Virus record (IMG/VR): IMGVR_UViG_3300037487_002004
Location: 1 to 25,199 of that record
DNA length: 25,199 nucleotides
Strand: one strand, 5' to 3'
Source of the DNA: a virus
Part shown: positions 1 through 21,570 of the stretch, piece after piece
Layout of the letters: the number at the start of each line of letters is the position of its first letter
Numbering within the stretch: position 1 is the stretch's first letter
Position numbers and translations under genes: made by a program
Notes under the pieces: generated by a model
Seen by the model: the letters and a program-made list of their open reading frames with translations, nothing else
What the model was told of the DNA's origin: nothing
Database searches by the model: none

Positions 1-290
1 TGTTCTACATCCCCATCGCACCGAAGTTGTTCCTCAAGGTCTTGTCATCCGGTGTGACCAGCGCCACGGAAGGGCCGCAAGCATGGGAGCACGTCTCGGT
101 GTCGCTACCGAACCGGACACCAACGTGGGAGGAGATGGTTAGGGTGAAGGACCTATTCTGGGGCGCGGAAGAACTCGTGCTCCAGTTCCATCCACCGCGC
201 TCGCAGTACGTCAGCCACTGCGGGAACTGCCTGCACCTGTGGAGGCACCCCGGGTACGAGCCGGAGCTCCCGCCGAAGGAGTCGCTGTGA
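1..290 (+). CDS. DUF7694-like phage protein, 5' end cut off
   Basis: The reading frame is open to the left edge of the window (first full codon at position 3), so the true start lies outside. The visible 96 residues contain the run WEHVSVSLPNRTPTWEEM, followed by VKDLFWGAEE, VLQFHPPRSQYV and CLHLW. I recognise these as the conserved core of the small phage protein family DUF7694, which has no known biochemical function. Almost the whole domain is present, so only a short N-terminal part should be missing. The gene ends in TGA at 288-290, overlapping the GTG start of the next gene, which points to translational coupling in an early or accessory operon. Family assignment is from remembered motifs, not a search. 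Confidence 0.75.
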   Translation, partial: FYIPIAPKLFLKVLSSGVTSATEGPQAWEHVSVSLPNRTPTWEEMVRVKDLFWGAEELVLQFHPPRSQYVSHCGNCLHLWRHPGYEPELPPKESL

Positions 291-610
291 CCGACGAGAA
301 GTGGATCGACGAGGCGCTATGGAAGGCGTCGCTGGCGGCGGAGGTCATCGCAGAGACGCGAGTGGCCGAGTCGCTCACGAGGTCCGGCGCCGACTTCCCG
401 CGGAAGAATCCGGTCGACCCGTCCGTGCCGATGCACCCGAACTGCCGGTGCGTGCCGATGTGCGATGACACGAGCAAGGCAGGTTTCCCCATGATCTGCG
501 GCCGATGTGGAAGGAAGTGGCGCAGGTTGTACCCCGAGCCTAAGTGGGGCGAGATGGCGTGGTGCGTGTTCTGTAAGAGGAAAGTAGGCCAAAGGAAGGA
601 CGACCTATGA
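287..610 (+). CDS. small cysteine-rich protein with zinc ribbon
   Basis: I do not recognise this 107-residue protein as a whole. The GTG start at 287 is chosen because it overlaps the previous stop as GTGA and has a GAAGGAG ribosome-binding site at about 275-281; an upstream GTG at 239 would add 16 unlikely residues inside the neighbouring gene. The C-terminal third has CGRCGRKW and, about 20 residues on, WCVFCKRK. These two CxxC knuckles are typical of a zinc ribbon. The middle carries HPNCRC, which resembles the short C-terminal signature of Mu gpF-like head morphogenesis proteins, but the rest of that family is absent and the protein is far too short. A DNA- or RNA-binding accessory role is possible but unproven. 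Confidence 0.7.
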   Translation: MTDEKWIDEALWKASLAAEVIAETRVAESLTRSGADFPRKNPVDPSVPMHPNCRCVPMCDDTSKAGFPMICGRCGRKWRRLYPEPKWGEMAWCVFCKRKVGQRKDDL

Positions 611-891
611 CGCGACCAGAAGAACAGGAAGAGCGCGATCACTTCTTCGAGTGCGGCAGGGACCTGATCGACGTCACGACGATGGCTGGGCCGAGGAGTC
701 CTCGAGTCCTCCACGAGCTGTACCACGGCGAGGTCTTTCTCGTCGAGGTTCGCCACGGCGACTGGCGCGAGATGATAGCCGGTGCGGCCTGGTGCAAGAT
801 CGACAACCAGGACGTGACGAGGGAAGAGTTCCAGCGCCGCTACGCCGAGGCGAAGGAACGAAAGAGGGTGCGAGATGAACAAGCCGCGTGA
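607..891 (+). CDS. hypothetical phage protein
   Basis: This 94-residue protein starts at ATG 607, overlapping the previous stop by ATGA, so it is probably translated by coupling. It is charged, with an acidic N-terminus (PEEQEERDHFFE), a central segment with alternating hydrophobic residues (EVFLVEVRHGDW) and a helical, Arg/Lys/Glu-rich C-terminus (RRYAEAKERKRVRDEQ). I see no catalytic motif, membrane segment or signal peptide and do not recognise the family. Its 3' end overlaps the next gene by 17 nt. It belongs to the run of small plus-strand accessory genes. Confidence 0.65.
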   Translation: MTRPEEQEERDHFFECGRDLIDVTTMAGPRSPRVLHELYHGEVFLVEVRHGDWREMIAGAAWCKIDNQDVTREEFQRRYAEAKERKRVRDEQAA

Positions 892-1072
892 AGGAACCTG
901 CCGCTCCTGCGGCGACCCGATCTTCTGGATGGGGACCGCGAAGGGGAGCTGGATCCCGGTCAATCCCGAGGAGGACGGCTCCGCGCCCGAGGGCGACCTC
1001 TTCGATCCGCAGACGATGACGAGCCACTTTGCCACATGCGCCGACGCCAACGACTGGAGGAAGAAGAAGTGA
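875..1072 (+). CDS. small zinc-finger-like phage protein
   Basis: This 65-residue protein begins CRSCGDPIFWMGTAKGSWIPVN. A CxxC knuckle followed by a W..T..G...PV pattern is common in short phage proteins predicted to hold a zinc-binding beta hairpin. A second set of candidate ligands, HFATC, lies near the C-terminus, so a complete Cys/His zinc site is plausible. The start is ATG 875, inside the end of the upstream gene. The stop overlaps the GTG of the next gene. No function is known for this type of protein; nucleic-acid binding is the usual guess. Confidence 0.7.
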   Translation: MNKPREGTCRSCGDPIFWMGTAKGSWIPVNPEEDGSAPEGDLFDPQTMTSHFATCADANDWRKKK

Positions 1073-1302
1073 GCGAGCACAAGTTCGAGATCGAGTGGAC
1101 GCAGCAGGCGCGCCTCTGGAGCGTTACCGCGGAGACGCAGGAGATCGCGCTACTGGTCGGCGAGAGCCTCTCGCTCAACCCCTCCGTCGGCTCGGTGCGC
1201 GTGACCGGGATCGTCAAGCAGTGGAGCCGTGTCGAGGAATCGACCGCGGCGCCGTGCTCCGTCCGCCAGGTGACGCCCATCGAAGCTGCGAACCACGACT
1301 GA
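1069..1302 (+). CDS. hypothetical small phage protein
   Basis: This protein has 77 residues. The GTG at 1069 is preferred over an ATG at 1036 because it makes a GTGA overlap with the previous stop and has a GGAGG site at about 1057-1061. The sequence alternates hydrophobic and polar residues (FEIEWTQQARLWSVTA, then GSVRVTGIVKQW), which suggests a small alpha/beta fold. No cysteine cluster or membrane segment is evident. The stop TGA overlaps an ATG of the following reading frame at 1302. I do not recognise the family. Confidence 0.6.
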   Translation: MSEHKFEIEWTQQARLWSVTAETQEIALLVGESLSLNPSVGSVRVTGIVKQWSRVEESTAAPCSVRQVTPIEAANHD

Positions 1303-1497
1303 TGCGCAAGCCGTCGCTCACGCGCGCCGTCAAGAACGGCCTCCTGGCGAGAACTCGCATCTTGCCCAACGGTTGTTTGGAGTGGAATCGACCGCCGGAC
1401 CTACCGCGACCTGCGCCGGGCTGAGAAGTGGCTTGAAGACATGGTCGCCTGGGAAGAGCGGTATCGGCCGGGAGCGAAGAGGAGGATCGGACGGTAA
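1302..1497 (+). pseudogene. small ORF apparently split by a frameshift
   Basis: An ATG at 1302 overlaps the previous stop. The first frame reads MRKPSLTRAVKNGLL and runs to a stop at 1424, but its last part (Pro/Arg-rich) no longer looks like protein. The next frame is open from 1303 to TAA 1497 without a good start of its own, and its end reads TYRDLRRAEKWLEDMVAWEE, a plausible amphipathic helix. Joining the two frames somewhere between about 1365 and 1398 gives one natural-looking small phage protein of about 64 residues. I therefore read it as one gene broken by an indel, or a sequencing or assembly error. Two separate tiny genes are the alternative. The region 1498-1549 holds only the leader of the next gene. 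Confidence 0.4.
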
Positions 1498-1549
1498 GAC
1501 AGACCATTGGATCAGCAGCTAAGTTTCACACAAAGGAGGACATCTCGAC

Positions 1550-2242
1550 ATGCCGCCGAGGAAGATGGAAGAGAGGAAGCATCCGATGGACTTGCAAACG
1601 AAGACGTCGAAGAAGATCACGGCGAAGGGTCCGACAACCCCAAAGACCAAAGCGGTGAGCCTTGCTCGGATCGACATCCGACGGTTCTCCGTGGAAATCG
1701 TAGGGACAGCGCCGCTCATCATGCACCGATGGTCAACGAAGCAGAAGCAGCAGATGCTCAAGAAGCAGATGCAAGAGACGACGACGAGGACACCGAAAGA
1801 CCCACTTGAGTGTTACGAGTCCAGCAAGTACGTCCTCCCCGACAAGAATGGAAACTTGACGATCCCATGCTTTCCTGCTTCGGCGTTCAAGCTCTGCGCC
1901 GTTCGCGGTGGGAAGCCACTCAAGATGGTGATGACGGACAGCTTAGCCTCGTTCTTCGTGACTGGGGTCTACTCGCCTCGGGACGGACGCGAGATGGTCC
2001 CGATCCGTGGCAAGTTCTCCATGAGGGAGGACATGGTCCGTCTGGACGACAAGACCGCCGACATCCGGTTTCGAGCACAGATCGTCGACTGGGCTGCGAC
2101 GCTTCAGATCGAGTACAACGCGGCCGCCGTCAGCCCGGAGCAGATCATCAACGCGCTCAATTCCGGCGGATTCGGCACCGGCGTGGGTGAGTGGAGGGTG
2201 GAGAAGAAGGGCGAAGCGGGTCGCTTCCGCGTGGTGGCGTAG
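1550..2242 (+). CDS. conserved phage protein of unknown function
   Basis: This 230-residue protein has a very strong ribosome-binding site, AAAGGAGG at 1532-1539, ten bases before the ATG. The first 40 residues are Lys/Thr/Pro-rich and probably disordered. From residue 46 the protein matches a family I know from many phage genomes: FSVEIVGTAPLIMHRW (46-61), CFPASAFK (107-114), SMREDMVRL (157-165), TADIRFRAQ (169-177) and FGTGVGEWR (208-216). Its function is not established. The pattern of a beta-strand opening on a 'pl(i)mH' motif and a Gly-rich end recalls RAMP/Cas7-type RNA-binding folds, but this is only an impression and needs a structure comparison. It is followed by the periodic GG array and then its usual partner gene. 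Confidence 0.75.
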   Translation: MPPRKMEERKHPMDLQTKTSKKITAKGPTTPKTKAVSLARIDIRRFSVEIVGTAPLIMHRWSTKQKQQMLKKQMQETTTRTPKDPLECYESSKYVLPDKNGNLTIPCFPASAFKLCAVRGGKPLKMVMTDSLASFFVTGVYSPRDGREMVPIRGKFSMREDMVRLDDKTADIRFRAQIVDWAATLQIEYNAAAVSPEQIINALNSGGFGTGVGEWRVEKKGEAGRFRVVA

Positions 2243-2257
2243 ACCACCGCAAGACGT

Positions 2258-2388
2258 GGCAGTCATGGACTTGGTTAGGCTCGGCGAGGCTGGGCGATAC
2301 AGGGTCGGGTTCGGCCGGGCAGTCATGGACAGGGTAGAGCCCGCAGGGGCTAGGCGTGGCACGGTACGGCTCGGATTGGCAGGCATGG
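2258..2388 (+). repeat. GG dinucleotide array with 5-nt period
   Basis: This fills the gap of about 170 bp between the two conserved early genes. Within 2258-2379, GG occurs at 18 of 25 positions spaced exactly 5 nt apart (2258, 2273, 2278, 2283, 2288, 2293, 2303, 2308, 2313, 2318, 2333, 2348, 2353, 2358, 2363, 2368, 2373, 2378). The remaining isolated GGs (2267, 2327, 2382, 2387) all share one other phase. The three bases between the GG pairs vary. A 13-nt direct repeat, GGCAGTCATGGAC, sits at 2258-2270 and 2318-2330, exactly 60 nt apart. The sense RNA would carry (GGNNN)n, which fits two-layer G-quadruplex spacing. Function is unknown. Confidence 0.8.
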
Positions 2389-2395
2389 TTTGAAG

Positions 2396-2401
2396 AAGGA
2401 G
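2396..2401 (+). promoter_or_regulatory. ribosome-binding site fixing a GTG start
   Basis: AAGGAG stands nine bases before the GTG at 2411. It favours that start over an in-frame TTG at 2390, which lies before the site and overlaps the end of the GG array. Confidence 0.6.
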
Positions 2402-2410
2402 AACTACGAC

Positions 2411-2914
2411 GTGACGTTCAAGTGGGCTAGCGGATCTCGCTTCGCAGCCGACCCGGACAAGGTCGGCAAGGAACTGAGGAAGGGCGGAAAGAAGCACACG
2501 GCGGAGTCCATCCTCCTTCTAGCAAGGTCGGCCGAGACGGAGTTGCACAAGTGCTTCGTCTGGGACGACAAGAAGGCGGCGCATCTTCACAGGATGGATA
2601 CGGCTCGATGTATCGGAAGGAGCCTCGTGATCGAAGAGGAGGTCTCCGGCAACCCCGGGGAGACGATCCAGGTCCGCGCCTTCGAGTGCGTGAACGAGGG
2701 GACGAACGGCGAGTCGAGGATGGCCTACGTTCCGACCCGCCAGGCCCTCTCCGACTCCGACATGAGGGCGCAGATCTTCAAGCGCCTGGCGGACGACATC
2801 GAGACGGCAACGAAGACGGCACAGAAGTACCGAGCCCTGCTCAGACCGGTCTCGTCTACGGTGGAGAGGCACCTCGTGGCCGCCGGGAAAGCCCTTTCGG
2901 GAACCGCGAGATGA
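2411..2914 (+). CDS. conserved phage protein of unknown function (partner of the 1550 gene)
   Basis: The GTG at 2411 gives 167 residues and is supported by the AAGGAG at 2396-2401. The start TFKWASGSRFAADPDKVG, the middle ELHKCFVWDDKKAAHLHR and the end ALSDSDMRAQIFKRLADDIE match a phage family I know, in which each member has an 'FKWASG...', a 'F.WDD..AA...R' and a '(L)SD.d.R.q...ra' block. In phages this family commonly follows the type of gene seen at 1550-2242, so the two may act together. No enzyme motif or membrane segment is visible. The C-terminal helix (ETATKTAQKYRALL) may form a coiled coil. Its stop overlaps the ATG of the HNH gene. The molecular role is unknown. Confidence 0.75.
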   Translation: MTFKWASGSRFAADPDKVGKELRKGGKKHTAESILLLARSAETELHKCFVWDDKKAAHLHRMDTARCIGRSLVIEEEVSGNPGETIQVRAFECVNEGTNGESRMAYVPTRQALSDSDMRAQIFKRLADDIETATKTAQKYRALLRPVSSTVERHLVAAGKALSGTAR

Positions 2915-3558
2915 CGACCAAGCCGAGGAAACGCAAGCCGCCATTCACTCCTCGATCCCAGATCAAGGCGGCGCTCCACAAGTTGTGGCTTGAATCCCGC
3001 GAGCGGCGCGAGGCGCTCTACCGCACGAGCTACTGCTGCGCCAAGTGCCGGCGGAAGGCGAGCAAGGCGAAGGGGCGTGAGTTCGCGGTCAGCGTACACC
3101 ACCTCGACGGGATCGACTGGATCGCCCTGGTCGATCTGGTGCGCGAGCGCCTCCTGCCGTCCCCGGACCGCCTGATGCCGCTCTGCCACGAGGACCACGA
3201 GATCGCCGACGCCGAGAGGCGGGAGAAGGCTGCCATCGAGAAGCATCTCGTCGCCAAGTTCTCGGAGATCTCTCAACGCTTGAGAGACAACGCGATCATC
3301 AACGGGACCGCCGGGTTCATCGACCCACCGGAGTTCGCCACCGGCCGGCCCCGAGAGAGCCGCGAAGCGATCCCCGGACCTACTCGTTCTGGTGCAGGTG
3401 CGGGATCTGGACGTACGGAGGCAGGCTCTCCGCCGGAGGCGCGTCGCTCCAGACGAACCAGAGGTCGAGCTCGTTCGGCTCGCCAGGTCTCGGCCGGACC
3501 TCGCAGTGACCGACCCAGAACGAAGCCTGGAAGGTGGTCTGACCGTTCTTCCCGATGA
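2911..3558 (+). CDS. HNH endonuclease-like protein
   Basis: The ATG at 2911 overlaps the previous stop (ATGA). Residues 11-30 (PFTPRSQIKAALHKLWLESR) and the Cys pair C43/C46 in CCAKC, followed by VHHL (His63-64) and LCHEDH (Cys92, His96), fit the beta-beta-alpha metal fold of HNH nucleases with a structural zinc. Phage HNH proteins cut DNA and can assist packaging or act as homing nucleases. This one groups with replication/recombination-type neighbours rather than terminase. The conserved domain ends by about residue 150. The remaining 60 or so residues are Arg/Ser/Gly/Pro-rich and lie on top of the opposite-strand gene at 3380-3592, so this tail is probably read-through after loss of an earlier stop, not a functional domain. 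Confidence 0.75.
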   Translation: MTTKPRKRKPPFTPRSQIKAALHKLWLESRERREALYRTSYCCAKCRRKASKAKGREFAVSVHHLDGIDWIALVDLVRERLLPSPDRLMPLCHEDHEIADAERREKAAIEKHLVAKFSEISQRLRDNAIINGTAGFIDPPEFATGRPRESREAIPGPTRSGAGAGSGRTEAGSPPEARRSRRTRGRARSARQVSAGPRSDRPRTKPGRWSDRSSR

Positions 3559-3592
3559 CCTGCGTCAGCTTGACCAGCAGTGTCTCAGGCAC
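3380..3592 (-). CDS. small protein at the end of the late operon, unknown function
   Basis: This protein has 70 residues if it starts at GTG 3592, which is preceded by AAAGGAGG at 3597-3604. An in-frame ATG at 3622 overlaps the upstream stop but puts this site inside the coding region. The protein has beta-type segments (TTFQASFWVGHCEV and LDLWFVWSD), one cysteine and no membrane segment or signal peptide. I do not recognise it. It is the last gene of the minus-strand late operon, directly after the two small membrane proteins, so a lysis-related or accessory role is possible by position only. Its 3' end overlaps the tail of the plus-strand HNH gene in a convergent arrangement. Confidence 0.55.
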   Translation of the reverse strand: MPETLLVKLTQVIGKNGQTTFQASFWVGHCEVRPRPGEPNELDLWFVWSDAPPAESLPPYVQIPHLHQNE

Positions 3593-3596
3593 GACT

Positions 3597-3604
3597 CCTC
3601 CTTT
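3597..3604 (-). promoter_or_regulatory. ribosome-binding site fixing a GTG start
   Basis: On the minus strand AAAGGAGG ends four bases before the GTG at 3592. It argues for that start rather than ATG 3622. Confidence 0.5.
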
Positions 3605-3618
3605 GTCAGCGAGTGCTC

Positions 3619-3885
3619 TCATCCGAGACCGTTGCGGTCGATCACGATTCGATCCCGGACCGTCATGGTCATGAGGGCGGCCACGGTCTCGGTCTTCTTG
3701 ATCGCGATCTCCCGCTGGACTTCCTGGACCGAGTAGGAGGCGACGGCAGCGGAGATGACACCGATCACGGCCGCGATCCCGAGTACGGGGTTAGGCACGG
3801 AGACGTAGGCAACGATCGACCCGGAGATGGTGGTCCCCACCCAACCCCACCACGCCCGCTTGCGGTAGAACGGCTTGCGGGTCAT
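3619..3885 (-). CDS. small membrane protein, holin candidate
   Basis: This 88-residue protein has a positively charged N-terminus (TRKPFYRKR). Two hydrophobic segments follow, at about residues 11-30 (WWGWVGTTISGSIVAYVSV) and 34-53 (VLGIAAVIGVISAAVASYSV), separated by a short turn with PNP. A charged helix completes it. This two-span hairpin and the location two genes from the endolysin fit a class II-type holin or an accessory lysis membrane protein. No sequence family is recognised. ATGA overlaps exist on both sides, so it is coupled to the upstream membrane protein. Either this protein or its neighbour at 3882-4103 could be the true holin; the other may be an antiholin or unrelated. Confidence 0.6.
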   Translation of the reverse strand: MTRKPFYRKRAWWGWVGTTISGSIVAYVSVPNPVLGIAAVIGVISAAVASYSVQEVQREIAIKKTETVAALMTMTVRDRIVIDRNGLG

Positions 3886-4103
3886 CGGCCGGCCTTGGCC
3901 GGGTCCCAGTTGACCAGCCGCGTCAGCAACTTGATGAGACCTGCCAAGGCCGGAAGGACGGCGGTCCAGATGACGGTCTCCAGCTCCCCGAACGGGTGGA
4001 AGGACGCCACCGCCCCGATCAGGAACCGGACCAGCATGGCCCCAAGGACGTAGAGCACCGTCTTGGCGAAGGTGAGCAAGAGATTCAACGGTTTCGGTGA
4101 CAT
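3882..4103 (-). CDS. small membrane protein, holin candidate
   Basis: This 73-residue protein starts at ATG 4103 with an AGAGGAG site a few bases before it. It has a long hydrophobic stretch at about residues 8-35 (LLLTFAKTVLYVLGAML and on) and a second at about 45-60 (VIWTAVLPALAGLIKLL), then a short Lys/Arg-containing end. A two-span protein of this size, 12 bp after the endolysin gene, fits a holin, which makes the inner-membrane holes that release or activate the endolysin. Family membership cannot be named from sequence alone. The gene overlaps the next small membrane protein by ATGA. Confidence 0.6.
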   Translation of the reverse strand: MSPKPLNLLLTFAKTVLYVLGAMLVRFLIGAVASFHPFGELETVIWTAVLPALAGLIKLLTRLVNWDPAKAGR

Positions 4104-4115
4104 GACGAACTCCTC

Positions 4116-4649
4116 TCAGTCATAGGCTCTGGTGAGCCATCCATTGAGAAACGATCCCAGCTCCGGCCGCTTGGCCACGAGCTGCCGGTAGAAAGAAGCC
4201 GCCTCGCAGCGGAGGCAGGCGACCAGGACGTGCGGCAGGGCCGCGGCGACAGAAGCGCGGGTGCGAGGTCCCAAGAGGCCGTCTTCAGTGACGCGGTCGC
4301 TCCCGGCTCTACAAGCCCTCTGGAGGATCAGGTGCGCCTGTCTCGGCCCACAGTTGACGGCGAGGTCGAAGAGCTTGATCGCTACGTCTTCCGGCAACGT
4401 CTCGTATCCGTACCGATCCCAGAACTCGATCGTGAAGATCCGGGCCGCCATGGGCCACGTCATCCCGCGGATGTCGTCTTCGTCCACGTCGCCGTCCCCG
4501 TCCACGTCCGCGAAGTCGTCCCAGATACTGCGCAGGAACCGCAACGAGACGCCGAATTTCGTCACGCCTCCAGGATCGGCGGCTTCATCCGTGACCTCGC
4601 CACCTTCATGCTCCTTGATGACGAGCAAGGCTCGATCCAGGGCAGTCAT
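4116..4649 (-). CDS. GH108 endolysin (N-acetylmuramidase)
   Basis: This 177-residue enzyme is predicted to cut the glycan strands of host peptidoglycan during lysis. HEGGEVTDEAADPGGVTKFG (14-33) is the glycosyl hydrolase 108 signature, with Glu15 in EGG as the expected catalytic acid. The C-terminal part, with LFDLAVNCGPRQAHLILQ and VTEDGLLGPRTRASV, matches the peptidoglycan-binding domain that follows GH108 (PG_binding_3 type). Between them, residues 48-59 form a textbook EF-hand loop (DVDGDGDVDEDD), so calcium binding is likely. There is no signal peptide or SAR anchor, so export should depend on a holin. It overlaps the upstream coiled-coil gene by ATGA. Confidence 0.9.
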   Translation of the reverse strand: MTALDRALLVIKEHEGGEVTDEAADPGGVTKFGVSLRFLRSIWDDFADVDGDGDVDEDDIRGMTWPMAARIFTIEFWDRYGYETLPEDVAIKLFDLAVNCGPRQAHLILQRACRAGSDRVTEDGLLGPRTRASVAAALPHVLVACLRCEAASFYRQLVAKRPELGSFLNGWLTRAYD

Positions 4650-5119
4650 GGCTTGAAACTCAACCGAACGATCAAGTCGACAATCCCAAACACTGCCGAC
4701 ACAGCCAAGGCGATGATAGAAAGTTGCACTCCCCTAGACGTTCTTCCAGCCTGTCGTTCTTCAGTCTTCTCTAAGATTTCGACACGAAACACCAGACTGT
4801 CATGCTTAGACTCGTAGACCGTGCGCTCCAACATGTTCTTCATGATCATCTCGTTCTGCGAATCTAGTTTCTCTTGCAGCCTGTTCATCCGATGTAGGCG
4901 TTCGTCGAGCGTAACAGCGGTGTCGTGCGTCCTTCGTTCCACGTCAAGGCGGTCTCTGTTTCGCTCCTTGTCCGACGCCTCCAATCGAAGAAGAATCTCG
5001 CGGCTCATGGACGCTACAGTGATGTCATGGGCGCTGACTTTCAGATCGCAGACCTTCTCCAATTCCTGGAGCTTCTCGTCGATGTAAGGACAGGAGGTCC
5101 TCGGGCAATCATCGGTCAT
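4646..5119 (-). CDS. coiled-coil protein with C-terminal membrane anchor (XhlA-like layout)
   Basis: This 157-residue protein begins with a short Cys-containing stretch (TDDCPRTSCPYIDEK). About 100 residues of charged heptad-like helix follow (for example LDERLHRMNRLQEKLDSQNE). One transmembrane segment lies near residues 131-153 (VQLSIIALAVSAVFGIVDLI), with a short basic end. This layout is that of XhlA/haemolysin-type phage proteins, which sit beside endolysins and assist membrane disruption; i-spanin-like membrane anchoring is another possibility. It precedes the endolysin with an ATGA overlap. The start has GGGAGGA upstream. The function is inferred from layout and place, not from sequence identity. 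Confidence 0.65.
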   Translation of the reverse strand: MTDDCPRTSCPYIDEKLQELEKVCDLKVSAHDITVASMSREILLRLEASDKERNRDRLDVERRTHDTAVTLDERLHRMNRLQEKLDSQNEMIMKNMLERTVYESKHDSLVFRVEILEKTEERQAGRTSRGVQLSIIALAVSAVFGIVDLIVRLSFKP

Positions 5120-5161: not shown

Positions 5162-7753
5162 TCAGCTTTCAGACGAAGCGGACGAGGACGAAGCGGACGA
5201 GGAGGAGGAGGAGGACGAAGAAGAGGAGGACCCGGAGCCGCCGGACTTCCCGGCAGTGACGATCTCTTCCTCCCACGTGATCTGCGAGTCGCCCACGCCC
5301 TCAAAGTCGAGCAGCCCCTCGTTGATGACCATGTTCTCGATGCGGATGACGAAGGTGCCGGCGGCCGTCGTGACCGCGACCACGTCCCCGGGGTTGAGGA
5401 AGAGATACTTCCGAGAGCAGAAGAAGTGGTACCGGGCGCGCTCGATCCACGCCTGGGCGATCTTCCGCGTGGCGTAGGTCTCGGCCTCGCTGGCGAGCAT
5501 GACCAATGGCAGGCTGAGCCCGACCTTCTCCAGCGATCGCGTCGACCAACTCGCCTTGCGAGCTAAGGCCGAGATGTACTCCTTCTGGCCGTCTAGGTAG
5601 CCCACCTCCACCATCGCCGGCATGGCCTCCGCGTTCTCATAGGAGGTGACGAGGTCCTGCGGGCGTTCGGAGTCGGACGGGTGCGCGGCCAGGTCTCCGA
5701 TCGGGATGTCAGTCCAGGCGATCCCGTCGCGGAAGAGGAAGAAGATCTTCCCGTCCACCTCGACACCGTCGAAGCCGTACGCCTCGCAGAGAGGAGAGAG
5801 AGCTCCCCGCGCCTGCATCCGGTTCTCCAGCAAGTAGCCCCGGAGGACGTCGGCCTCTGCGCTCGCGAGGTCGGTCACGTCGATCTGTCCCGCGGTTAGG
5901 CCGGCGCGCAGGCAGATGTCCGTCACGCAGGCGGAGAGGGTCGTCTCCACGGGTTCGGACTGCGAGGTCGCGATGGCGTAGGAGTAATGACCTCCCGCGG
6001 CGATGAGCGTCCAGTAGTATCCGGAGGGTGGAGATGGGATCGTGGTCTCTCCATCCGTGTTCCTTCCCCAACCGACTACGGTGCCGTCGAACTTGATCGC
6101 CAAGCAGTGAAAGGATCCACAACAAATTCCGCAGAAGTCCGAGGTCCCAGGGACGTTCGAGACCTGTCCATAGCCGTCATAGCCCCAGGCCGACAGCGAT
6201 CCGTCCGTCTTCAACCCTACGCCATGCCCGTCTCCGCAGGCGATGTCCTCGAAGTATCCGCCTGGTATTCCAGACACTTGTCCGTAGGCGTTACTCCCCC
6301 ACGCCTGCAAGCCGGATGCGGCGGAGATCCCGAGACTCCACCAGTAACCACCGGCGACGCGAATGAAGTCAGTGTAAGCAGGAACGGTACACTGACCATA
6401 GGTATTGTCTCCCCACGCAAGGAGCGTCCCATCGGACTTCAGACCGAGAGAGTGAAGATGCCCACAGGCAATCGCTACGAAGTCTGAGTTCGGAGAAGGA
6501 ATCGTGCATTGTCCGCTGGTGTTGAGGCCCCACGCCACCAGCGTACCGTCAGCCTTGAGCCCGAGGCTGTGCGACCCTCCCGCAGCCACCGCGATGAATC
6601 CACCGTTGGGATTCGGAACGTCGCACTCTCCAGAGGCGTTGCCCCCGTGAGTCAAGATCGAGCCGTCGGACTTCAGGCCGAGAACGTGGTTGTCTGAAGA
6701 GGAGCACCGAATGAAGTCGTCTCCTTCACCACCGAAGATCCCGTCGCCTGAAAGGCCCCAGTTATGCAACTCTCCGCCCGCCAGCACCGGGGCCACCGAT
6801 GACACCTCGAAGCTGAACGTCGGGATGGAGTTGTTCGTGAGGTGCAGCGGGAAGTTCTTGAAGACGATGTAGGCCAGGTCGCGGTAGGCCGGCGTGATGG
6901 CGGCGTCCGCAGAATTATAGTCAGGCTCAAACAACACCCACTCGCGTTCGCCGTTGTGCTTATAGACGCAGTGATCATCCTGATTGTAGATCATCTGGCC
7001 CTTCTGAGGTTTACCGGATCGATCGGATGTGTCCGTAGGAGCTCCGCCGAAGACCCAAGTCATCCTGTCGTTGAACCGGCCCCACTCGGCTATGTATCCC
7101 TTGTGGCGAGACCATTGCCCAGTAGCGTTGGGACTCAAGGCGTGTATATCCCCGACGCTAGGATTCCCTGGCGCGGACGTCCGGCCCACGTCTAGCACCT
7201 GCAAGAGACCCACATTGCTCGACTCTCCCAAGATCGAAGGGTCTTGTACTTGAGTGGGAGTCCCAAGGTGAACGGTGAACTGCACCTGAGAGGCGAGCTC
7301 CGCCGCGGGTTCCGTCAGTGGTTCGCGCGAGCCCATCCCCCGCGTATCAACGAAGCACAACTCGTTGGCCCAGATCCTCGTGATCCCCCCGATAGGTCCG
7401 CGGCAGATTCCGATGGCGAACGTGCAGAGGACAGGATCGAGTCCGGCGTTCTTGGTGATCTTGCCCATCCAGATCATGTTGCCGGCGAACTTTGCCGTGC
7501 CGTAGATCGAAGGGATGACGACGCCCCAAGCGCCCGTCTGCGTTCCTAGGTCAAACGATTGCGGGCCTTCAAGTCGGTTCGCCGGCTTTCCCTTCCAGGC
7601 GTCGATCACCATGCCGACCATAGAGACGGCCCCGGAGATCGCCTGCGCCCCGGCGAAGCCCTGCGCTGCCCCTCCGAAGGATCCGGGCTTGAAGGTCTGA
7701 GCCGAGGGTTGATGGAAGCCTCCACCGCCCGGAGTCGGATTACCGAATGGCAT
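5162..7753 (-). CDS. tail hub/tip protein with inserted RCC1-like propeller
   Basis: This 863-residue protein is probably the tail-tip hub that lies after the DUF2163 gene in GTA-like tails. The N-terminus is Gly-rich, with a hydrophobic stretch at 33-50. Residues 60-135 (VVIPSIYGTAKFAGNMIWMG, CRGPIGGITRIWANE) match the start of phage gpJ/GTA-type hub proteins. AYRDLAYIVFKNFPL (289-303) and IPTFSFEV (310-317) belong to the same hub fold. That fold resumes at 602-680 (SACVTDICLRAGL, ARGALSPLCEAYGFDGVEV). Between the halves, residues 322-597 form seven RCC1-like blades. The protein ends in about 20 serines. Upstream and downstream genes are 4 and 42 bp away. The propeller is likely a host-binding or structural add-on; the rest probably anchors to the tail. 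Confidence 0.8.
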   Translation of the reverse strand: MPFGNPTPGGGGFHQPSAQTFKPGSFGGAAQGFAGAQAISGAVSMVGMVIDAWKGKPANRLEGPQSFDLGTQTGAWGVVIPSIYGTAKFAGNMIWMGKITKNAGLDPVLCTFAIGICRGPIGGITRIWANELCFVDTRGMGSREPLTEPAAELASQVQFTVHLGTPTQVQDPSILGESSNVGLLQVLDVGRTSAPGNPSVGDIHALSPNATGQWSRHKGYIAEWGRFNDRMTWVFGGAPTDTSDRSGKPQKGQMIYNQDDHCVYKHNGEREWVLFEPDYNSADAAITPAYRDLAYIVFKNFPLHLTNNSIPTFSFEVSSVAPVLAGGELHNWGLSGDGIFGGEGDDFIRCSSSDNHVLGLKSDGSILTHGGNASGECDVPNPNGGFIAVAAGGSHSLGLKADGTLVAWGLNTSGQCTIPSPNSDFVAIACGHLHSLGLKSDGTLLAWGDNTYGQCTVPAYTDFIRVAGGYWWSLGISAASGLQAWGSNAYGQVSGIPGGYFEDIACGDGHGVGLKTDGSLSAWGYDGYGQVSNVPGTSDFCGICCGSFHCLAIKFDGTVVGWGRNTDGETTIPSPPSGYYWTLIAAGGHYSYAIATSQSEPVETTLSACVTDICLRAGLTAGQIDVTDLASAEADVLRGYLLENRMQARGALSPLCEAYGFDGVEVDGKIFFLFRDGIAWTDIPIGDLAAHPSDSERPQDLVTSYENAEAMPAMVEVGYLDGQKEYISALARKASWSTRSLEKVGLSLPLVMLASEAETYATRKIAQAWIERARYHFFCSRKYLFLNPGDVVAVTTAAGTFVIRIENMVINEGLLDFEGVGDSQITWEEEIVTAGKSGGSGSSSSSSSSSSSSASSSSASSES
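5165..5242 (-). repeat. serine-rich low-complexity end (trinucleotide tract)
   Basis: The last 24 or so codons of the hub protein are almost all serine with a few alanines. At DNA level this is a run of TCC/TCG/TCT-type triplets that includes a block of five consecutive TCC codons at about 5200. The tract could gain or lose triplets by slippage without shifting the frame. Confidence 0.75.
5963..6790 (-). other. seven-blade RCC1-like domain inside the tail hub gene
   Basis: Seven copies of a WG.N..GQ-type motif followed by (T)IP or VP occur at residues 332, 369, 408, 447, 485, 523 and 562, spaced 37-39 residues apart. Each blade also carries a 'GG.(H)SLGLK.DGTL..WG' strand set, for example GGSHSLGLKADGTLVAWG. 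Seven blades make a closed propeller as in RCC1 proteins. The domain lies between two parts of the hub fold and so looks inserted. Confidence 0.8.
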
Positions 7754-17416: not shown

Positions 17417-18412
17417 CTACCGCAGGTGCCACGGCGCATTCGCCCGCCGATGATGTTCGGCCAGTAGTTGATCGAAGATCCATGCGTAGGTCTTGGAGAT
17501 CCCATCCACGAGCGGGGTGTTCGGCTCCCATCCCAGGACGCTGCGGATCATAGAGTTGTCGCTGTTACGACCGGCCACACCTGTCGGGGAGTTGAGGAGG
17601 TAGTGTCGCTCCAGCTTGACGTTCGCGCAGGACTCCACGACTCCCACGAGTTCGTCCACGGTAACCTTCTCCGAGCTCCCGATATTCACCGGCTCGGAGC
17701 AGTTGCTCTCCATGAGCCGGAGGGTGCCCTCGATACAATCATCGATCCAGGTGAAGCTCCGCGTCTTGCTCCCGTCGCCCCAGATCTCGATTCCGCCTGC
17801 TCTGTTGATGACCGCCTCGGCCACCTTCCGGCAGATGGCGGCCGGCGCCTTCTCTCGACCGCCTCGAAAAGCCCCATGCGACCCATAGATGTTGTGGTAG
17901 CGAGCGACTCGGATCTGAAGTCCGACGTCCTCCGCGAAGTGCCGGCACATCCTCTCTGAGAACAGCTTCTCCCAGCCGTAGCCGTCCTCCGGGCTGGCCG
18001 GGTAGGCGTCCGCCTCGACCAGACCCCTGATCGACGGGTTCGTTTGCTTGTCGGCCGCGTAGACGCAGGCGGAAGAGGAGAAGAAGAATCGCTCCACCTT
18101 CGCCTCCGAAGCCGCCATGAGGAGGTGGGTGTTGATGAGGACGTTGAGCATGCACGCAACCTTGTGACTCTCGATGAAGCCGATCCCGCCCATGTCTGCC
18201 GCGAGGTTGTAGACCTTCGAGCACCCGGCGACAGCGGTGTGGCAGTCGGAGATTCGCTTCAGGTCTAGGACGCGGTTCTCAGCTTCCGGATGCTTCTGGT
18301 ACCAGTCGATGAATGGTTTGATGTCCACCGCGCGAACCTCGTTGCCGTCGGCGAGGAGGCGCTTTACCAACCAACCACCGATGAACCCGCCGGCTCCGCA
18401 GACCGCGATCAT
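17417..18412 (-). CDS. GDP-mannose 3,5-epimerase-like SDR enzyme
   Basis: This 331-residue extended short-chain dehydrogenase has its NAD site at GAGGFIGG (6-13). Strong GME features are YNLAADMGGIGFIESH (68-83), FFSSSACVY with Cys116, the catalytic YxxxK pair Tyr145 and Lys149 (YGWEK), RYHNIYGSHGAFRGGREKAP (171-190, Lys188), IWGDGSKTRSFTWIDDC and GVAGRNSDN. Plant GME uses an equivalent Cys and Lys for acid-base catalysis while turning GDP-D-mannose into GDP-L-galactose (or GDP-L-gulose). All these residues are present here, so activity is likely. The product would supply a donor for transferases in this cassette. An ATGA overlap links it to the dehydrogenase gene. Confidence 0.85.
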   Translation of the reverse strand: MIAVCGAGGFIGGWLVKRLLADGNEVRAVDIKPFIDWYQKHPEAENRVLDLKRISDCHTAVAGCSKVYNLAADMGGIGFIESHKVACMLNVLINTHLLMAASEAKVERFFFSSSACVYAADKQTNPSIRGLVEADAYPASPEDGYGWEKLFSERMCRHFAEDVGLQIRVARYHNIYGSHGAFRGGREKAPAAICRKVAEAVINRAGGIEIWGDGSKTRSFTWIDDCIEGTLRLMESNCSEPVNIGSSEKVTVDELVGVVESCANVKLERHYLLNSPTGVAGRNSDNSMIRSVLGWEPNTPLVDGISKTYAWIFDQLLAEHHRRANAPWHLR

Positions 18413-19506
18413 GGCAGGACCTCGTAGCAGAAACGGTCACCGTGGATTAGGCGAACCTGCTTGATCACGTCCTCGCGGTCGGCGATGAAAACCTTCTTGC
18501 CGGCCTCGCGAGCGAGGACCGCGAGCGCGAGCCGCTGCGACATCTCGATCATGTCGGTTCCTTCCTTGTAGGTCACGCCCACGATGCGGAAGAACTTCGA
18601 CGGGTCGAGTAGGACACGGGCAAGTTGCTCTTCGAGGTGCAGTTGGTTCTGGGCGTCGGAGGCGGCCGAGAGCCTTATGTCCAATCCCACGGCAGCCGCG
18701 GCCAACCCCAAGGCTCGATTGTCGCGGGGGAGGCACGGCCCACCGTAGCCGTCTCCGTATCGCATGTACCGATTCCCCACGCGGCTGTCATGGCCGATAC
18801 AGGACAGGGCGTTGTCCACGTCTCCGCCACACGCCAGCCTATGAAGAAGGTCTCCGATCGCATTGGCGAAGGAGATCTTCATGGTCAGAAAGCAGTTCAG
18901 GGCGATCTTCGTCACCTCTGCCGCCGTGATCCCCATATGGAAGATGAAGGCGTCGTTCTTGACGATGCGCCGGTAGACCTCGGTGATCGCCTCTCCGGCC
19001 TTGTCGTCGTCCTCTCCCACGAGGACCAAGTCGGGACGAGTCAGCCCCTTGAGGATCTCTCCCTGGGCGATGAACTCCGGGTTGTAGGACAGCCGAAACC
19101 GCTTTGACTTTGCGAGCATACTTGCCGAGAGGATGTAACCTGGCATCGTGGTGCAGCAGATCACGAGGTCCTTCTCTTCATCAGCCACGGGCAGGCGAGC
19201 CAACACGTCGTCGACGGCCGTGTGGTCATAACTCCCATTCGGAAGCGATGGAGTAGGAACGAACACGAAGGAGATCGGGCATGCCTCGACGACTTCCGGA
19301 ATCGTCTTCACGACAGAGAGGTCGAGAGTCTTCGCCATCAGCTCGTTCACGCCGGGCTCTTTGGAACGGAATGATCCGTCTTCGACGCTCCGCAGGTAGG
19401 GCAGGTCCTTATCCGTCGCCACGACCCTGAACCCGGCGTCAGCCGCGGCCAGCGCGAAGCACAGTCCGAGCTTTCCGACTCCGATGACGCCTACTGTTTC
19501 TGGCAT
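18409..19506 (-). CDS. UDP-glucose/GDP-mannose-type nucleotide-sugar 6-dehydrogenase
   Basis: This 365-residue protein has its NAD site at GVIGVGKLG (6-14). Other motifs are CTTMPGY (118-124), YNPEFIAQGEIL (141-152), EVTKIALNCFLTMKISFANA with Lys200 and Asn204, and the catalytic Cys258 in GYGGPCLPRDN (253-263). The C-terminal nucleotide-binding domain is shortened but keeps VTYKEGTDMIEMS with Lys314. The family oxidises a hexose 6-OH to a uronic acid on UDP-glucose, GDP-mannose or UDP-HexNAc; the sequence does not settle which. It is somewhat shorter than bacterial Ugd or AlgD. Its neighbour is GME-like, so GDP-mannose is a reasonable substrate guess. It is preceded by GAGGA before the ATG and overlaps the upstream transferase by 16 nt. 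Confidence 0.85.
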   Translation of the reverse strand: MPETVGVIGVGKLGLCFALAAADAGFRVVATDKDLPYLRSVEDGSFRSKEPGVNELMAKTLDLSVVKTIPEVVEACPISFVFVPTPSLPNGSYDHTAVDDVLARLPVADEEKDLVICCTTMPGYILSASMLAKSKRFRLSYNPEFIAQGEILKGLTRPDLVLVGEDDDKAGEAITEVYRRIVKNDAFIFHMGITAAEVTKIALNCFLTMKISFANAIGDLLHRLACGGDVDNALSCIGHDSRVGNRYMRYGDGYGGPCLPRDNRALGLAAAAVGLDIRLSAASDAQNQLHLEEQLARVLLDPSKFFRIVGVTYKEGTDMIEMSQRLALAVLAREAGKKVFIADREDVIKQVRLIHGDRFCYEVLP

Positions 19507-20366
19507 GCGCTGATCCTCAGCGCACCGTTCTCTTCGACGGTGGCATAGTTGATGAGACCCCAGTCCGCTCGGTTCTGATAACCGTCCTGATTGTAGCTCA
19601 TTCCTTCGGGAGGTTTGCCGTGGAACAGGTGATCATAAGCACCCGGAAGGTGTTGAAGAGTGACTCCTTGCCGGTGCATCTGCCACAAGATCTCACCGTC
19701 CATTCCAGACCGATGCCAGTACTCATTTCTGTGGATCGGACTGACCTCGTCGAATCCTTGCGCGACGGAGAGCATGGTCGTTCTACTGACCATAAGGAAG
19801 TTGCCACCGTAGTTTGCAGAGACCCTCCAGTCAGGACAGCGCCTGTCATCAAGATGCGATGTTCTGATCACATCTCTCGTCTGGGGATGAAGGTCTCTGT
19901 GAAGGCTCGGACGGAAGAAGTGCTGATCATCATCGACCACAGACTGTGCAACGACGGCCGCAAGCAACTCTTCGGACAGCATCACGTCCCCGTTCAGGAT
20001 GAGGACGTAACGGCCGGCGGCTCTGCGGATGCCGACGTTCTTGGCGAAGTGCTCGAAGAATCCGGTGGCGGGGATCAATCCCTCGGCTCTCGCGACGCTT
20101 TCACCAACGATGATAGTCCGCACTCTTCTATCTGCAAAGATCGGCTTGAGCTGATCGACCATGCACAATGGATCGCCAGGTGAGCACCAGTCGACGATGA
20201 TCCACTCCGCATTGATGTCCGTCCGTGCGAGCAGGTCTAGATTGTGAGAGACGGCCAAGCCGAACCGATCGACGAAAGGTAGACCGCCCGTGAAGACTCG
20301 TCCTCCTTTGGACGGATCGGACCCGTAGTCCTTGTTCCGTGCCGACGTGACGATGGAGAGGTCCAT
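19491..20366 (-). CDS. GT-A family glycosyltransferase (GT2-like)
   Basis: ATG 20366 is preferred to an upstream in-frame start at 20396. It shares a base with the previous stop (TGATG) and has AGGA close by, giving 291 residues. The opening DLSIVTSARN is a GT2-like first strand. INAEWIIVDWCSPGDPL replaces the common DDGS loop. The acceptor-metal motif appears to be NGDVMLSEELL (GDV in place of DxD). The later VSANYGGNFLMVSRTTML and MDGEILWQMHRQG match the C-terminal part of galactosyltransferase-like GT2/GT7 enzymes. Donor and acceptor are unknown. It is part of the glycan cassette between the dehydrogenase and an FkbM methyltransferase. Confidence 0.75.
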   Translation of the reverse strand: MDLSIVTSARNKDYGSDPSKGGRVFTGGLPFVDRFGLAVSHNLDLLARTDINAEWIIVDWCSPGDPLCMVDQLKPIFADRRVRTIIVGESVARAEGLIPATGFFEHFAKNVGIRRAAGRYVLILNGDVMLSEELLAAVVAQSVVDDDQHFFRPSLHRDLHPQTRDVIRTSHLDDRRCPDWRVSANYGGNFLMVSRTTMLSVAQGFDEVSPIHRNEYWHRSGMDGEILWQMHRQGVTLQHLPGAYDHLFHGKPPEGMSYNQDGYQNRADWGLINYATVEENGALRISACQKQ

Positions 20367-21001
20367 CACATCCTCATGTAGCAGGCGTCGCCCCACCAGC
20401 GGTGCACCATGTAGGTCTCAACCCTCTTGAACCCGCGCGCCGCCAGGTACTCGTCCAGCTCGCCGACCTGGACGCACCCTTCGTACAGCTCCGCGCAGTT
20501 GATCTCCGTGACGATGGCCTGGATCCCCCGAATGGTCTGCTCAGCACCGCGCAGAACGGCTCCCTCGTAGCCCTGCACGTCCATGCACAAAAAGTCGAAT
20601 ACCGCTCCCTCAATCTCGACTTCCTTGAGGACCCCGTCGAGCGTCCTCTGCGGAACGACAAGCTCGGAATCGAACACCACGTCCGGGGACATCTGGGTGT
20701 GCAGTTTTGGACGCAGACACGAGCTGGACATCCCCTTGTTCGCCGGATGGTGCTCGACGCTCATGGTGACCGTACCGTCCTCGGGACCCAGTGCCACCTG
20801 GAAGGCCCGAGGTCGCTTGACCTTCACGATCTTCTTGAGCAGCTCCGCGTAGGGCATCGGCAACGGCTCGAAGAACAAAGCGTCCTCGATGCCCATCGCG
20901 ACGAACGAGTCCACCTCCTGTCCCATGTGCGCCCCGACCTGGATCACGCCCTTGGGACGGAAGCGATGAAGCGCGAATATCTTCGCGGTGTCTACGAGCA
21001 T
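20366..21001 (-). CDS. FkbM-family methyltransferase
   Basis: ATG 21001 is chosen because GGGGAGG (21007-21013) lies five bases before it. A GTG at 21007 overlaps that site and the previous stop. The 211-residue protein has the SAM site KGVIQVGAHMGQEVDSF, then FFEPLPMPYAEL and FQVALGPEDGTVTM. The FkbM hallmark FLCMDVQGYEGAVLRGAE follows, with IVTEINCAELYEG after it. FkbM enzymes methylate hydroxyl groups, often of sugars, so modification of a glycan made by this cassette is likely. There is no transmembrane segment. Confidence 0.85.
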   Translation of the reverse strand: MLVDTAKIFALHRFRPKGVIQVGAHMGQEVDSFVAMGIEDALFFEPLPMPYAELLKKIVKVKRPRAFQVALGPEDGTVTMSVEHHPANKGMSSSCLRPKLHTQMSPDVVFDSELVVPQRTLDGVLKEVEIEGAVFDFLCMDVQGYEGAVLRGAEQTIRGIQAIVTEINCAELYEGCVQVGELDEYLAARGFKRVETYMVHRWWGDACYMRM

Positions 21002-21003
21002 GA

Positions 21004-21570
21004 TCACCTCCCCGGACGAAAGACCATGAGGTTGTCCTTGAACCAGTCGAAACAGGCGGCGGTGCGCAGCCGAACCGTCGCGAACGGGTCGGCGTGGAAT
21101 CTACGGATCGCGAACTCGTCAGCCCACTCACCAGGCGCCCGACAGGCGATGTGTCCGTAGCCGGTCTGTCCAGGAACCGCTCCTGAGAATACGATCAGAC
21201 GCGGCGTCCGCGCGGCGATCGCGTCGAACAGCGCCTTGTGGCGCTCCATCGCGACGTGCTCGGTGACCTCCAGGCACAGAACCAGGTCGAAGTGCCCGAG
21301 GTCGCGAGGAGGGCCGAAGGTCACGTCTTCGGCGAGGACCCTCCACCTGCCGGCGTCGACGGAGATCAGCGGTTCAATCCCGAGCAGCGGACCAGCCATC
21401 GAGTCGGACAGGAACTCAAGATAACGGCCCAACCCGCAGCCGATGTCGATGACGGACCGACACGGAGGGACGGCCAGGTCTCGAATCGCGCCGGCGAGCG
21501 CCTCGTCGAAGAAGGGCATCTCCTCGTGGTCTCCAACGGTCCACGGGCCACCGAACTCCGCCTCGCTCAT
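21004..21570 (-). CDS. class I SAM-dependent methyltransferase
   Basis: The start is ATG 21570, overlapping the fucosyltransferase stop (ATGA), for 188 residues. A longer reading upstream to 22050 would overlap that gene completely and looks like antisense-type sequence. Motif I is SVIDIGCGLGRYLEF, motif II GPLLGIEPL and motif IV FDLVLCLEVTEHV. Then come LIVFSGAVPGQTGYGHIACR and the 'WADEF...RF' block common in phage and polysaccharide-cluster enzymes. The substrate may be a sugar or nucleotide sugar but is unknown. It is coupled to the FkbM gene. Confidence 0.85.
   Translation of the reverse strand: MSEAEFGGPWTVGDHEEMPFFDEALAGAIRDLAVPPCRSVIDIGCGLGRYLEFLSDSMAGPLLGIEPLISVDAGRWRVLAEDVTFGPPRDLGHFDLVLCLEVTEHVAMERHKALFDAIAARTPRLIVFSGAVPGQTGYGHIACRAPGEWADEFAIRRFHADPFATVRLRTAACFDWFKDNLMVFRPGR

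What the first reader, a model, noticed from the sequence alone, without database searches (positions are those of the whole stretch)
2258..2388. GG dinucleotides on an exact 5-nt grid between two conserved early genes
18 of 25 grid positions from 2258 to 2378 carry GG in a single phase, with the bases between them varying. A 13-nt direct repeat, exactly 60 nt apart, marks two points. The array is not a simple tandem repeat, since only GG and the spacing are kept. Codon bias would give a period of 3, not 5. The sense transcript would hold many GGN3GGN3GGN3GG units, suitable for two-tetrad G-quadruplexes, or a binding lattice for a protein that contacts RNA or DNA every 5 nt. The gene just before it has a RAMP-like look to me, which is speculation.
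Basis: partly seen in the sequence, partly recalled or inferred. Interest (0 to 1): 0.75.

Follow-up and report, generated by a model that had tools for sequence, protein, structure and literature searches.

The report
Phage VIPR guide-RNA array
The evenly spaced GG pairs look like a phage-encoded guide-RNA array lying beside the gene for its CRISPR-related protein partner, a member of the recently described VIPR family with which phages can aim at chosen DNA, often that of rival phages.

Summary
In detail: 18 of 25 positions on one 5-nt grid carry GG, against a shuffle mean of 7.9 and maximum of 13 in 20,000. Six GGCNN units in a row occur in at least 120 stretches of viral contigs, and the most widespread gene family in those loci includes the window's own 1550 gene. 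Starting from that protein instead, 77 of 90 loci (73 of 82 after removing near-duplicates) carry a strong 5-nt GG grid on the gene's strand, against 1 on the other strand. The 1550 protein is predicted to have the Csm3/Cas7 RAMP fold, and a profile of its family matches one PDB sequence, 'SUSP1 Vipr protein', E = 1.7e-43. A 2026 preprint describes VIPR: a phage RAMP protein with vrRNAs of GGY/NN repeats that recognise DNA by a 1-nt-skip code (PMC13142463). I read the window as vipr gene, short vrRNA array and accessory gene: a new member of a known kind. No target was found for its guides. A 4-nt GGCA step that punctuates arrays in this clade, also in AT-rich relatives with a relaxed repeat, is detail not described in the preprint's main text.

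The parts
1550..2242 (+). vipr gene: 230-aa RAMP protein (PHROG 4652)
   Evidence: phrog_4652 E=1e-20; AF2 pLDDT 89.5, pTM 0.80, Foldseek E=3e-6 and VIA-align Z up to 12.0 to type III RAMP subunits; family profile A1 hits PDB 36pp_D 'SUSP1 Vipr protein' E=1.7e-43
2258..2388 (+). vrRNA array of GGY-NN units on a 5-nt grid
   Evidence: 18 of 25 GG on the grid, shuffles max 13; same kind of array near the homologous gene in 77 of 90 protein-first loci and 6 of 6 inspected phage records
2258..2270 (+). punctuation element, copy 1: GGCA step followed by GTCAT GGAC
   Evidence: 13-nt repeat; clade-wide GGCA step
2273..2317 (+). guide 1, nine units on the grid, NN = TA TC GA TG GA AG CG TC CG (unit at 2298 is TACAG, not GG)
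   Evidence: read; the 1-nt-skip reading follows PMC13142463; target not found
2318..2330 (+). punctuation element, copy 2: GGCA step followed by GTCAT GGAC
2333..2377 (+). guide 2, nine units on the grid, NN = AG CC GG TA GT AC AC TC TT (units at 2338 and 2343 are not GG; the reading of the first units is uncertain because a one-base shift lies somewhere in 2332-2348)
   Evidence: read; target not found
2378..2388 (+). punctuation element, copy 3 (GGCAGGCATGG), end of array, shortly before the RBS of the next gene
2411..2914 (+). candidate vap (vipr accessory) gene, 167 aa, PHROG 15946 family
   Evidence: phrog_15946 E=8e-12; family profile found in 80 of 90 protein-first vipr loci; homologs follow vipr in three Gordonia and two Mycobacterium phages; AF2 pLDDT 90.9, no PDB match at E<=0.001

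Best explanation
This is a VIPR locus (Viral Interference Programmable Repeat): vipr at 1550-2242, a vrRNA array at 2258-2388 with two guides, and a vap-like gene at 2411-2914. Proposed mechanism: the array is transcribed, Vipr subunits assemble along it with the GGY trinucleotides as contacts, and the NN dinucleotides pair with double-stranded DNA with one base skipped between pairs (NNxNNx), usually the codon wobble base; the bound complex represses transcription of its target, often a competing phage. Shown in the preprint for relatives (main text): vrRNA expression and co-purification with Vipr (SUSP1 and P. fulva systems), 1-nt-skip DNA binding and reporter repression, loss of silencing when GGY or NN pairing is disturbed, and phage defence. 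Shown here: the array and its statistics, the gene pair, predicted fold, homology, and the strand-specific association. Inferred: one Vipr per 5-nt unit, expression, assembly, targeting and role for this particular phage.
For: Grid confirmed. DNA-first: among 121 loci (120 fetched by six GGCNN units alone, plus L001), the largest ORF cluster after masking arrays spans 48 loci and includes the 1550 gene; 33 of 48 members lie within 200 nt of an array or run into it, 31 of those 33 on its strand. Protein-first: of 90 loci fetched by Vipr-like protein, 77 have at least 8 of 10 GG on a 5-nt grid somewhere on the vipr strand of the fetched stretch, 1 on the other strand; at periods 4, 6 and 7 the counts are 0, 5 and 0, after mononucleotide shuffling 0; after removing near-duplicates 73 of 82 against 1. 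The five at period 6 include two coding repeats. RAMP fold: Foldseek 69 hits at E<=0.001, the 50 shown being Csm, Cmr or type VII CRISPR complexes; VIA-align Z up to 12.0, rmsd 2.9 over 147 residues. Profile of 46 members matches only 36pp_D 'SUSP1 Vipr protein' up to E=10. All 46 members match phrog_4652. Unit make-up: position 3 is C or T in 96% of 1,625 protein-first units, positions 4-5 carry 1.89 and 1.98 bits, as in the preprint's GGY/NN. NN composition follows codon positions 1-2 (r=0.56) rather than 2-3 (-0.02) or 3-1 (-0.07), in line with a skip at the wobble base.
Against: The window protein alone does not find 36pp_D significantly (E=0.16); the link needs the family profile. Seven of 25 grid positions lack GG (three if the four inside the two 13-nt repeats are set aside), so the guides are imperfect. 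No structured 3' tail was found (fold z=-0.15; no Rfam hit in the window). No target was found: 0 exact 9-unit matches for either guide, and 8-unit hits look like chance. Guides of the fetched loci show no clear excess of targets among those loci under any skip rule. In the codon test the best codon model (both strands, -9168.8) barely beats a uniform one (-9185.8), and the one-strand codon-1-2 model (-9200.8) does not. 13 of 90 protein-first loci fall below 8 of 10 GG; of the six lowest, four end at a contig edge soon after vipr and two carry a relaxed repeat.
Confidence: 0.93

Rival explanations
1. The array is a G-quadruplex-forming regulatory element in the mRNA leader of the 2411 gene.
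For: Many GGN3GG units on the sense strand shortly before an RBS.
Against: The conserved pyrimidine at position 3 is not needed for a quadruplex; arrays in relatives lie upstream of vipr, between vipr and vap, or after vap; AT-rich relatives keep the 5-nt register and the pyrimidine with few GG; co-occurrence with one RAMP family.
Confidence: 0.02
2. The array is an mRNA leader bound by the 1550 protein to control translation of the 2411 gene (a TRAP-like cis-regulatory lattice), with no guide function.
For: Position right before the RBS of 2411; period-5 contacts are also a feature of TRAP (recalled, no call).
Against: NN positions near maximal entropy; arrays of more than 100 units in some loci; in 48 of 90 protein-first loci an array lies after the vap gene; the preprint shows that changing NN redirects DNA targeting in a relative.
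Confidence: 0.04
3. The array is a decayed, non-functional VIPR array.
For: Seven of 25 grid positions lack GG while many relatives are near perfect; each guide holds an extra one-base shift (60 nt between marks instead of 5n+4); no target found.
Against: Both flanking genes are intact open frames and typical of their families; the GGCA mark is intact in all three copies; other arrays of the clade also hold relaxed units.
Confidence: 0.15

Closest known systems
VIPR systems (PMC13142463, bioRxiv 2026.04.26.720920), SUSP1 and P. fulva type II
   Same: phage-encoded single RAMP protein, adjacent accessory gene, vrRNA of GGY/NN pentanucleotide repeats
   Different: Here two short guides lie between vipr and vap and are punctuated by a 4-nt GGCA step; no structured 3' tail was found.
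Class 1 CRISPR RAMPs, Csm3/Cas7
   Same: predicted fold of the 1550 protein: VIA-align Z 11.4 to named Csm3 5yjd_A, 12.0 to 9g9g_I of a Csm complex
   Different: no CRISPR-like direct repeats in window 1-5000 and no Cas match above chance among six neighbouring ORFs; 5-nt repeat with a fixed GGY
Arrays in Gordonia phages UmaThurman, Pipp and ODay
   Same: vipr - array - 2411-type gene in the same order as the window
   Different: longer arrays with more GGCAGGC marks; UmaThurman gp40 and Pipp gp43 are annotated as proteins across the array

Membership tests
VIPR | Vipr protein of the RAMP fold with glycine-rich C-terminal loop | tested here: met
   predicted fold; G207, G211 and G224 nearly or fully invariant in alignment A1; profile match to 36pp_D E=1.7e-43
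VIPR | adjacent RNA gene of GGY/NN (YNNGG) repeats, 9-16 per vrRNA | tested here: met
   nine grid units in each guide between the 13-nt repeats, 1 and 2 of them without GG; met but imperfect
VIPR | GGY conserved and NN hypervariable across systems | tested here: met
   167 runs (1,625 units) in protein-first loci, 303 runs (3,326 units) in DNA-first loci. GG is imposed by the count in both sets, and C at position 3 was favoured by the fetching pattern in the DNA-first set; Y and NN in the protein-first set were not imposed
VIPR | accessory vap gene in the locus | tested here: met
   2411 family in 80 of 90 protein-first loci, which were fetched with the window's own Vipr subfamily, and 27 of 120 DNA-first loci; which vap number it is cannot be told here
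VIPR | mostly on phage or provirus genomes | tested here: met
   the window is the whole of a 25,199-base virus record, possibly a fragment, with tail genes
VIPR | invariable structured 3' tail on the vrRNA (pseudoknot in the SUSP1 clade) | tested here: inconclusive
   no structure signal in 2243-2410 (z=-0.15), no Rfam hit in the window; no comparative search for a tail was made
VIPR | 1-nt-skip DNA targets of the guides | tested here: inconclusive
   0 exact 9-unit matches for two guides; 8-unit hits at chance level; codon-phase composition mildly supportive
VIPR | vrRNA expressed and co-purified with Vipr; transcriptional repression | not testable with these tools
   needs RNA sequencing and reporter assays
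CRISPR-Cas (Class 1) | CRISPR repeat-spacer array and cas operon beside the RAMP gene | tested here: not met
   no CRISPR-like direct repeats of 18 nt or more in window 1-5000; six ORFs from 239 to 2914 have no Cas match in PHROGs or Pfam and only a chance-level Cmr6 match of the 2411 protein in PADLOC (E=0.009). The record may be a fragment.

The most novel reading that the evidence does not exclude
In the VIPR clade with the 2411-type accessory gene, one 4-nt step (GGCA) replaces a 5-nt unit about every 7-14 units. It may be a punctuation mark that sets where one guide ends and the next begins on a continuous, spacer-free array, so that many guides are packed head to tail and one transcript may carry several Vipr complexes. 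AT-rich relatives (L157, L162) keep this mark and its 5n+4 spacing while the repeat relaxes from GGY-NN to about GNY-NN, and the window's 13-nt repeat is the mark plus a fixed start of each guide.
Probability: 0.5. Interest if true: 0.55.

Novelty: new member of a known kind. Interest (0 to 1): 0.45.

Why it matters
VIPR was described in a 2026 preprint as an RNA-guided system that may predate CRISPR. This window shows that its signature can be read from raw sequence, and the searches here give more than a hundred fetched contigs in which it lies with a protein family that has no functional name in the libraries searched. They form a comparative set for the guide code. The GGCA mark is a concrete handle on how multi-guide arrays without spacers are divided, which the preprint's main text does not spell out.

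Tried and rejected
G-quadruplex, TRAP-like leader, codon bias and coding repeats were considered. Codon bias gives period 3. The strongest period-6 GG arrays (L158, L180) look like coding repeats. RNA folding gave no signal. Rfam gave only two tRNAs in 12 sources, so no hammerhead-type array was seen in that small sample. Promoter and terminator scans of 1300-3000 gave nothing above shuffles. PADLOC gave one chance-level match, Cmr6 to the 2411 protein, E=0.009.

Target search. Exact 9-unit 1-nt-skip patterns gave 0 hits for both guides in viral contigs. Guide 2 units 2-9 gave 2 hits, both antisense in long ORFs with the skip at codon position 3: one in a GpA-type terminase (L219), one in a virion structural protein (L220). 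Guide 1 units 1-8 gave 5 hits, one of them in phase in a long ORF, a GpA terminase ATPase (L223). I noted the terminase idea and a prediction (written in the same turn as the test scan). The test scan with guide 1 units 2-9 gave 21 hits; the unit before the match was TA in 0 of 21. Of the 9 loci with an in-phase ORF of 76 aa or more, 8 were run against PHROGs: portal protein in 3 (a fourth, L231, not run, shows the same residues), phosphohydrolase in 1, methyltransferase in 1, none in 3, terminase in 0. I therefore dropped the terminase link. Cross-targeting among the fetched loci did not clearly exceed shuffled guides at skips 0-4 (at skip 1, 8 against 4 guides with one mismatched unit, mostly 8-unit guides) or 0-3.

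Vap fold: Foldseek found no hit at E<=0.001; the best was 0.075, to a mitochondrial RNA polymerase complex, with scattered winged-helix regulators below. I draw no conclusion from it. In the VIA-align list for Vipr 47 of 50 titles name CRISPR effectors or Cas7-11/gRAMP and three say only 'bacterial protein'; families not listed are not excluded. 36pp itself is not in the rows shown.

The odds of the novel case were raised from 0.4 to 0.5 for that reason.

Rows dropped before counts. Alignment A1 holds the window, 43 of the 48 cluster members and 2 of the 3 of a second cluster (L001_8 was replaced by the window; L011_12, L028_12, L031_0, L118_21 and L065_8 were left out as fragments, wrong-strand or poorly bounded). 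Alignment A2 holds the window and 16 of 17 vap cluster members (L047_5 left out). Of 33 phage records, 6 were inspected. One search kept the best 80 of 524 confirmed loci. Some of its loci come from the same contigs as the DNA-first set (L152/L073, L194/L027 and L188/L054 by contig name; L178/L027 by shared sequence), so the two sets are not wholly independent.

Papers: PMC13142463, whole main text read in four parts; its supplement and figures were not seen. Other papers were seen only in search listings.

Full report
On a single 5-nt grid from 2258 to 2378, 18 of 25 positions carry GG. Dinucleotide-preserving shuffles of the stretch give a mean of 7.9 and never exceeded 13 in 20,000 trials, and nothing else in the 25-kb window passes 9 of 25 for GG or 10 of 25 for CC. 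The 13-nt repeat at 2258 and 2318 is exact, and a related third element follows at 2378, so three stand 60 nt apart. The third base of the GG units is C or T in 17 of 18.

The array is not private to this phage. I clustered the ORFs of those loci plus L001 after masking the arrays. The largest cluster covered 48 of 121 loci and contained the window's 1550 gene; 33 of the 48 members lie within 200 nt of an array or run into it, 31 of them on its strand.

The reverse test was made from the protein. Of 90 loci fetched by Vipr-like protein sequence (80 viral, the best of 524; 10 from cellular genomes), 77 have at least 8 of 10 GG on a 5-nt grid on the gene's strand within the fetched stretch, and 63 have at least 9. 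On the opposite strand 1 of 90 reaches 8. At periods 4, 6 and 7 the numbers reaching 8 are 0, 5 and 0, and after mononucleotide shuffling 0. After merging near-duplicates the count is 73 of 82 against 1. Six of six inspected phage records with the gene (three Gordonia, two Mycobacterium and one Pseudomonas phage, of 33 records found) carry such arrays.

The 1550 protein matches PHROG 4652, of unknown function, as do all 46 members of alignment A1; Pfam and NCBIfam give nothing above chance. AlphaFold2 with that alignment gives pLDDT 89.5 and pTM 0.80. PDB matches are type III and type VII CRISPR RAMP subunits: 69 matches at E <= 0.001, the 50 shown all from Csm, Cmr or type VII complexes, and VIA-align Z up to 12.0 with rmsd 2.9 over 147 residues. 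A profile search of PDB sequences gives a single hit, 36pp_D, 'SUSP1 Vipr protein', at 1.7e-43; the window protein by itself reaches only E = 0.16.

[quoted passage not shown] main text read). It describes VIPR: a phage RAMP protein, an accessory vap gene, and vrRNAs of 9-16 YNNGG repeats whose NN pairs specify DNA with one skipped base between pairs. The natural targets it reports are mostly satellites and prophages, and some types look like host defence. A full-text search for the system's names (2024 on, at least two of three terms) found no other paper in the library. The window fits in anatomy: vipr 1550-2242, array 2258-2388, candidate vap 2411-2914.

The comparative sets reproduce the GGY/NN rule. 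Position 3 is C or T in 96% of 1,625 units in the protein-first loci, while positions 4 and 5 carry 1.89 and 1.98 bits; the DNA-first loci give 97% of 3,326 units, but there the fetching pattern favoured C. NN composition over 3,315 dinucleotides follows codon positions 1-2 (r = 0.56) and not 2-3 or 3-1, as expected if the skipped base is the codon wobble base. This is mild support: a uniform model scores almost as well as the best codon model.

The 2411 gene belongs to a family (PHROG 15946) found in 80 of the 90 protein-first loci, which were fetched with the window's own Vipr subfamily, and in 27 of 120 DNA-first loci. Homologs follow vipr in Gordonia and Mycobacterium phages. Its predicted fold is confident (pLDDT 90.9) but has no PDB match at E <= 0.001. 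Which of the preprint's vap types it is cannot be settled here.

One feature goes beyond the preprint's main text. In loci with the 2411-type gene, arrays are broken by a 4-nt step, GGY-X-GGY, with X = A in 511 of 567 cases; 100 of 113 such loci have at least one, against 17 of 66 vipr loci without that gene. Of 369 spacings between successive marks in the former, 272 are 5n+4; of 308 such spacings in a second count, 273 hold 7-14 units, and the third base of the mark is C in 99% of 466 contexts, against 50-66% C in neighbouring units. Two AT-rich loci that score low for GG (L157, L162) keep GGCAG marks, mostly 49-65 nt apart, 9 segments among them with 5n+4 spacing; in those the unit has relaxed to about G-N-Y-N-N (position 1 G in 70%, position 3 T or C in 97% of 91 units). 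The window's three elements all keep GGCA, but its marks are 60 nt apart, not 59, so each guide holds one extra base, at GGACTT in guide 1 and somewhere in 2332-2348 in guide 2. I read the mark as a boundary between guides. The preprint mentions staggered arrays with overlapping vrRNAs and a related repeat consensus in supplementary figures that I could not see, so parts of this may already be described there.

Decoding the window's guides on the grid with the 1-nt-skip rule gives TA-TC-GA-TG-GA-AG-CG-TC-CG and AG-CC-GG-TA-GT-AC-AC-TC-TT. Neither has an exact match in viral contigs. Eight-unit matches were few, and an apparent link to GpA-type terminase genes did not recur in a test scan (21 hits; 0 terminases among the 8 in-phase loci run against PHROGs). 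The targets are unknown. Seven of 25 grid positions lack GG and no 3' tail structure was found, so partial decay remains possible.

Verdict: a real and correctly spotted signal, whose interpretation was half right (RAMP partner, 5-nt lattice), and which is best explained by a recently described system. It is a new member of a known kind.

Noticed in passing
L123 3625-3948 and L124 3111-3380: UmaThurman gp40 and Pipp gp43 are annotated as hypothetical proteins but lie across the vrRNA array, so they are probably not genes.
   Followed up: partly
L157 4190-4703 and L162 4202-4710: AT-rich relatives with GGCAG marks spaced mostly 5n+4 and a relaxed GNY-NN-like unit instead of GGY-NN: an array that a plain GG search misses.
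   Followed up: partly
window 5162-7753 (-): The 863-aa tail protein matches PHROGs named 'regulator of chromosome condensation' in its middle and ends in a long serine tract.
   Followed up: no
window 17417-25033 (-): A run of ORFs that look from their translations like sugar-nucleotide enzymes, methyltransferases and glycosyltransferases; my reading, not searched.
   Followed up: no
window 4641-4651 (+): One further copy of GGCAGTCATGG outside the array, overlapping the start codon of the opposite-strand ORF 4116-4649; probably coincidence.
   Followed up: no
L123, L125, L126, L127, L128: In these annotated phages vipr lies near the immunity region (integrase, repressor, Cro, antirepressor or excisionase genes), or near helix-turn-helix genes in ODay.
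   Followed up: no
L030 2120-2450: GGCNN blocks separated by a repeated hairpin-like spacer instead of the GGCA step, an alternative array architecture (seen by eye; no Rfam match).
   Followed up: no
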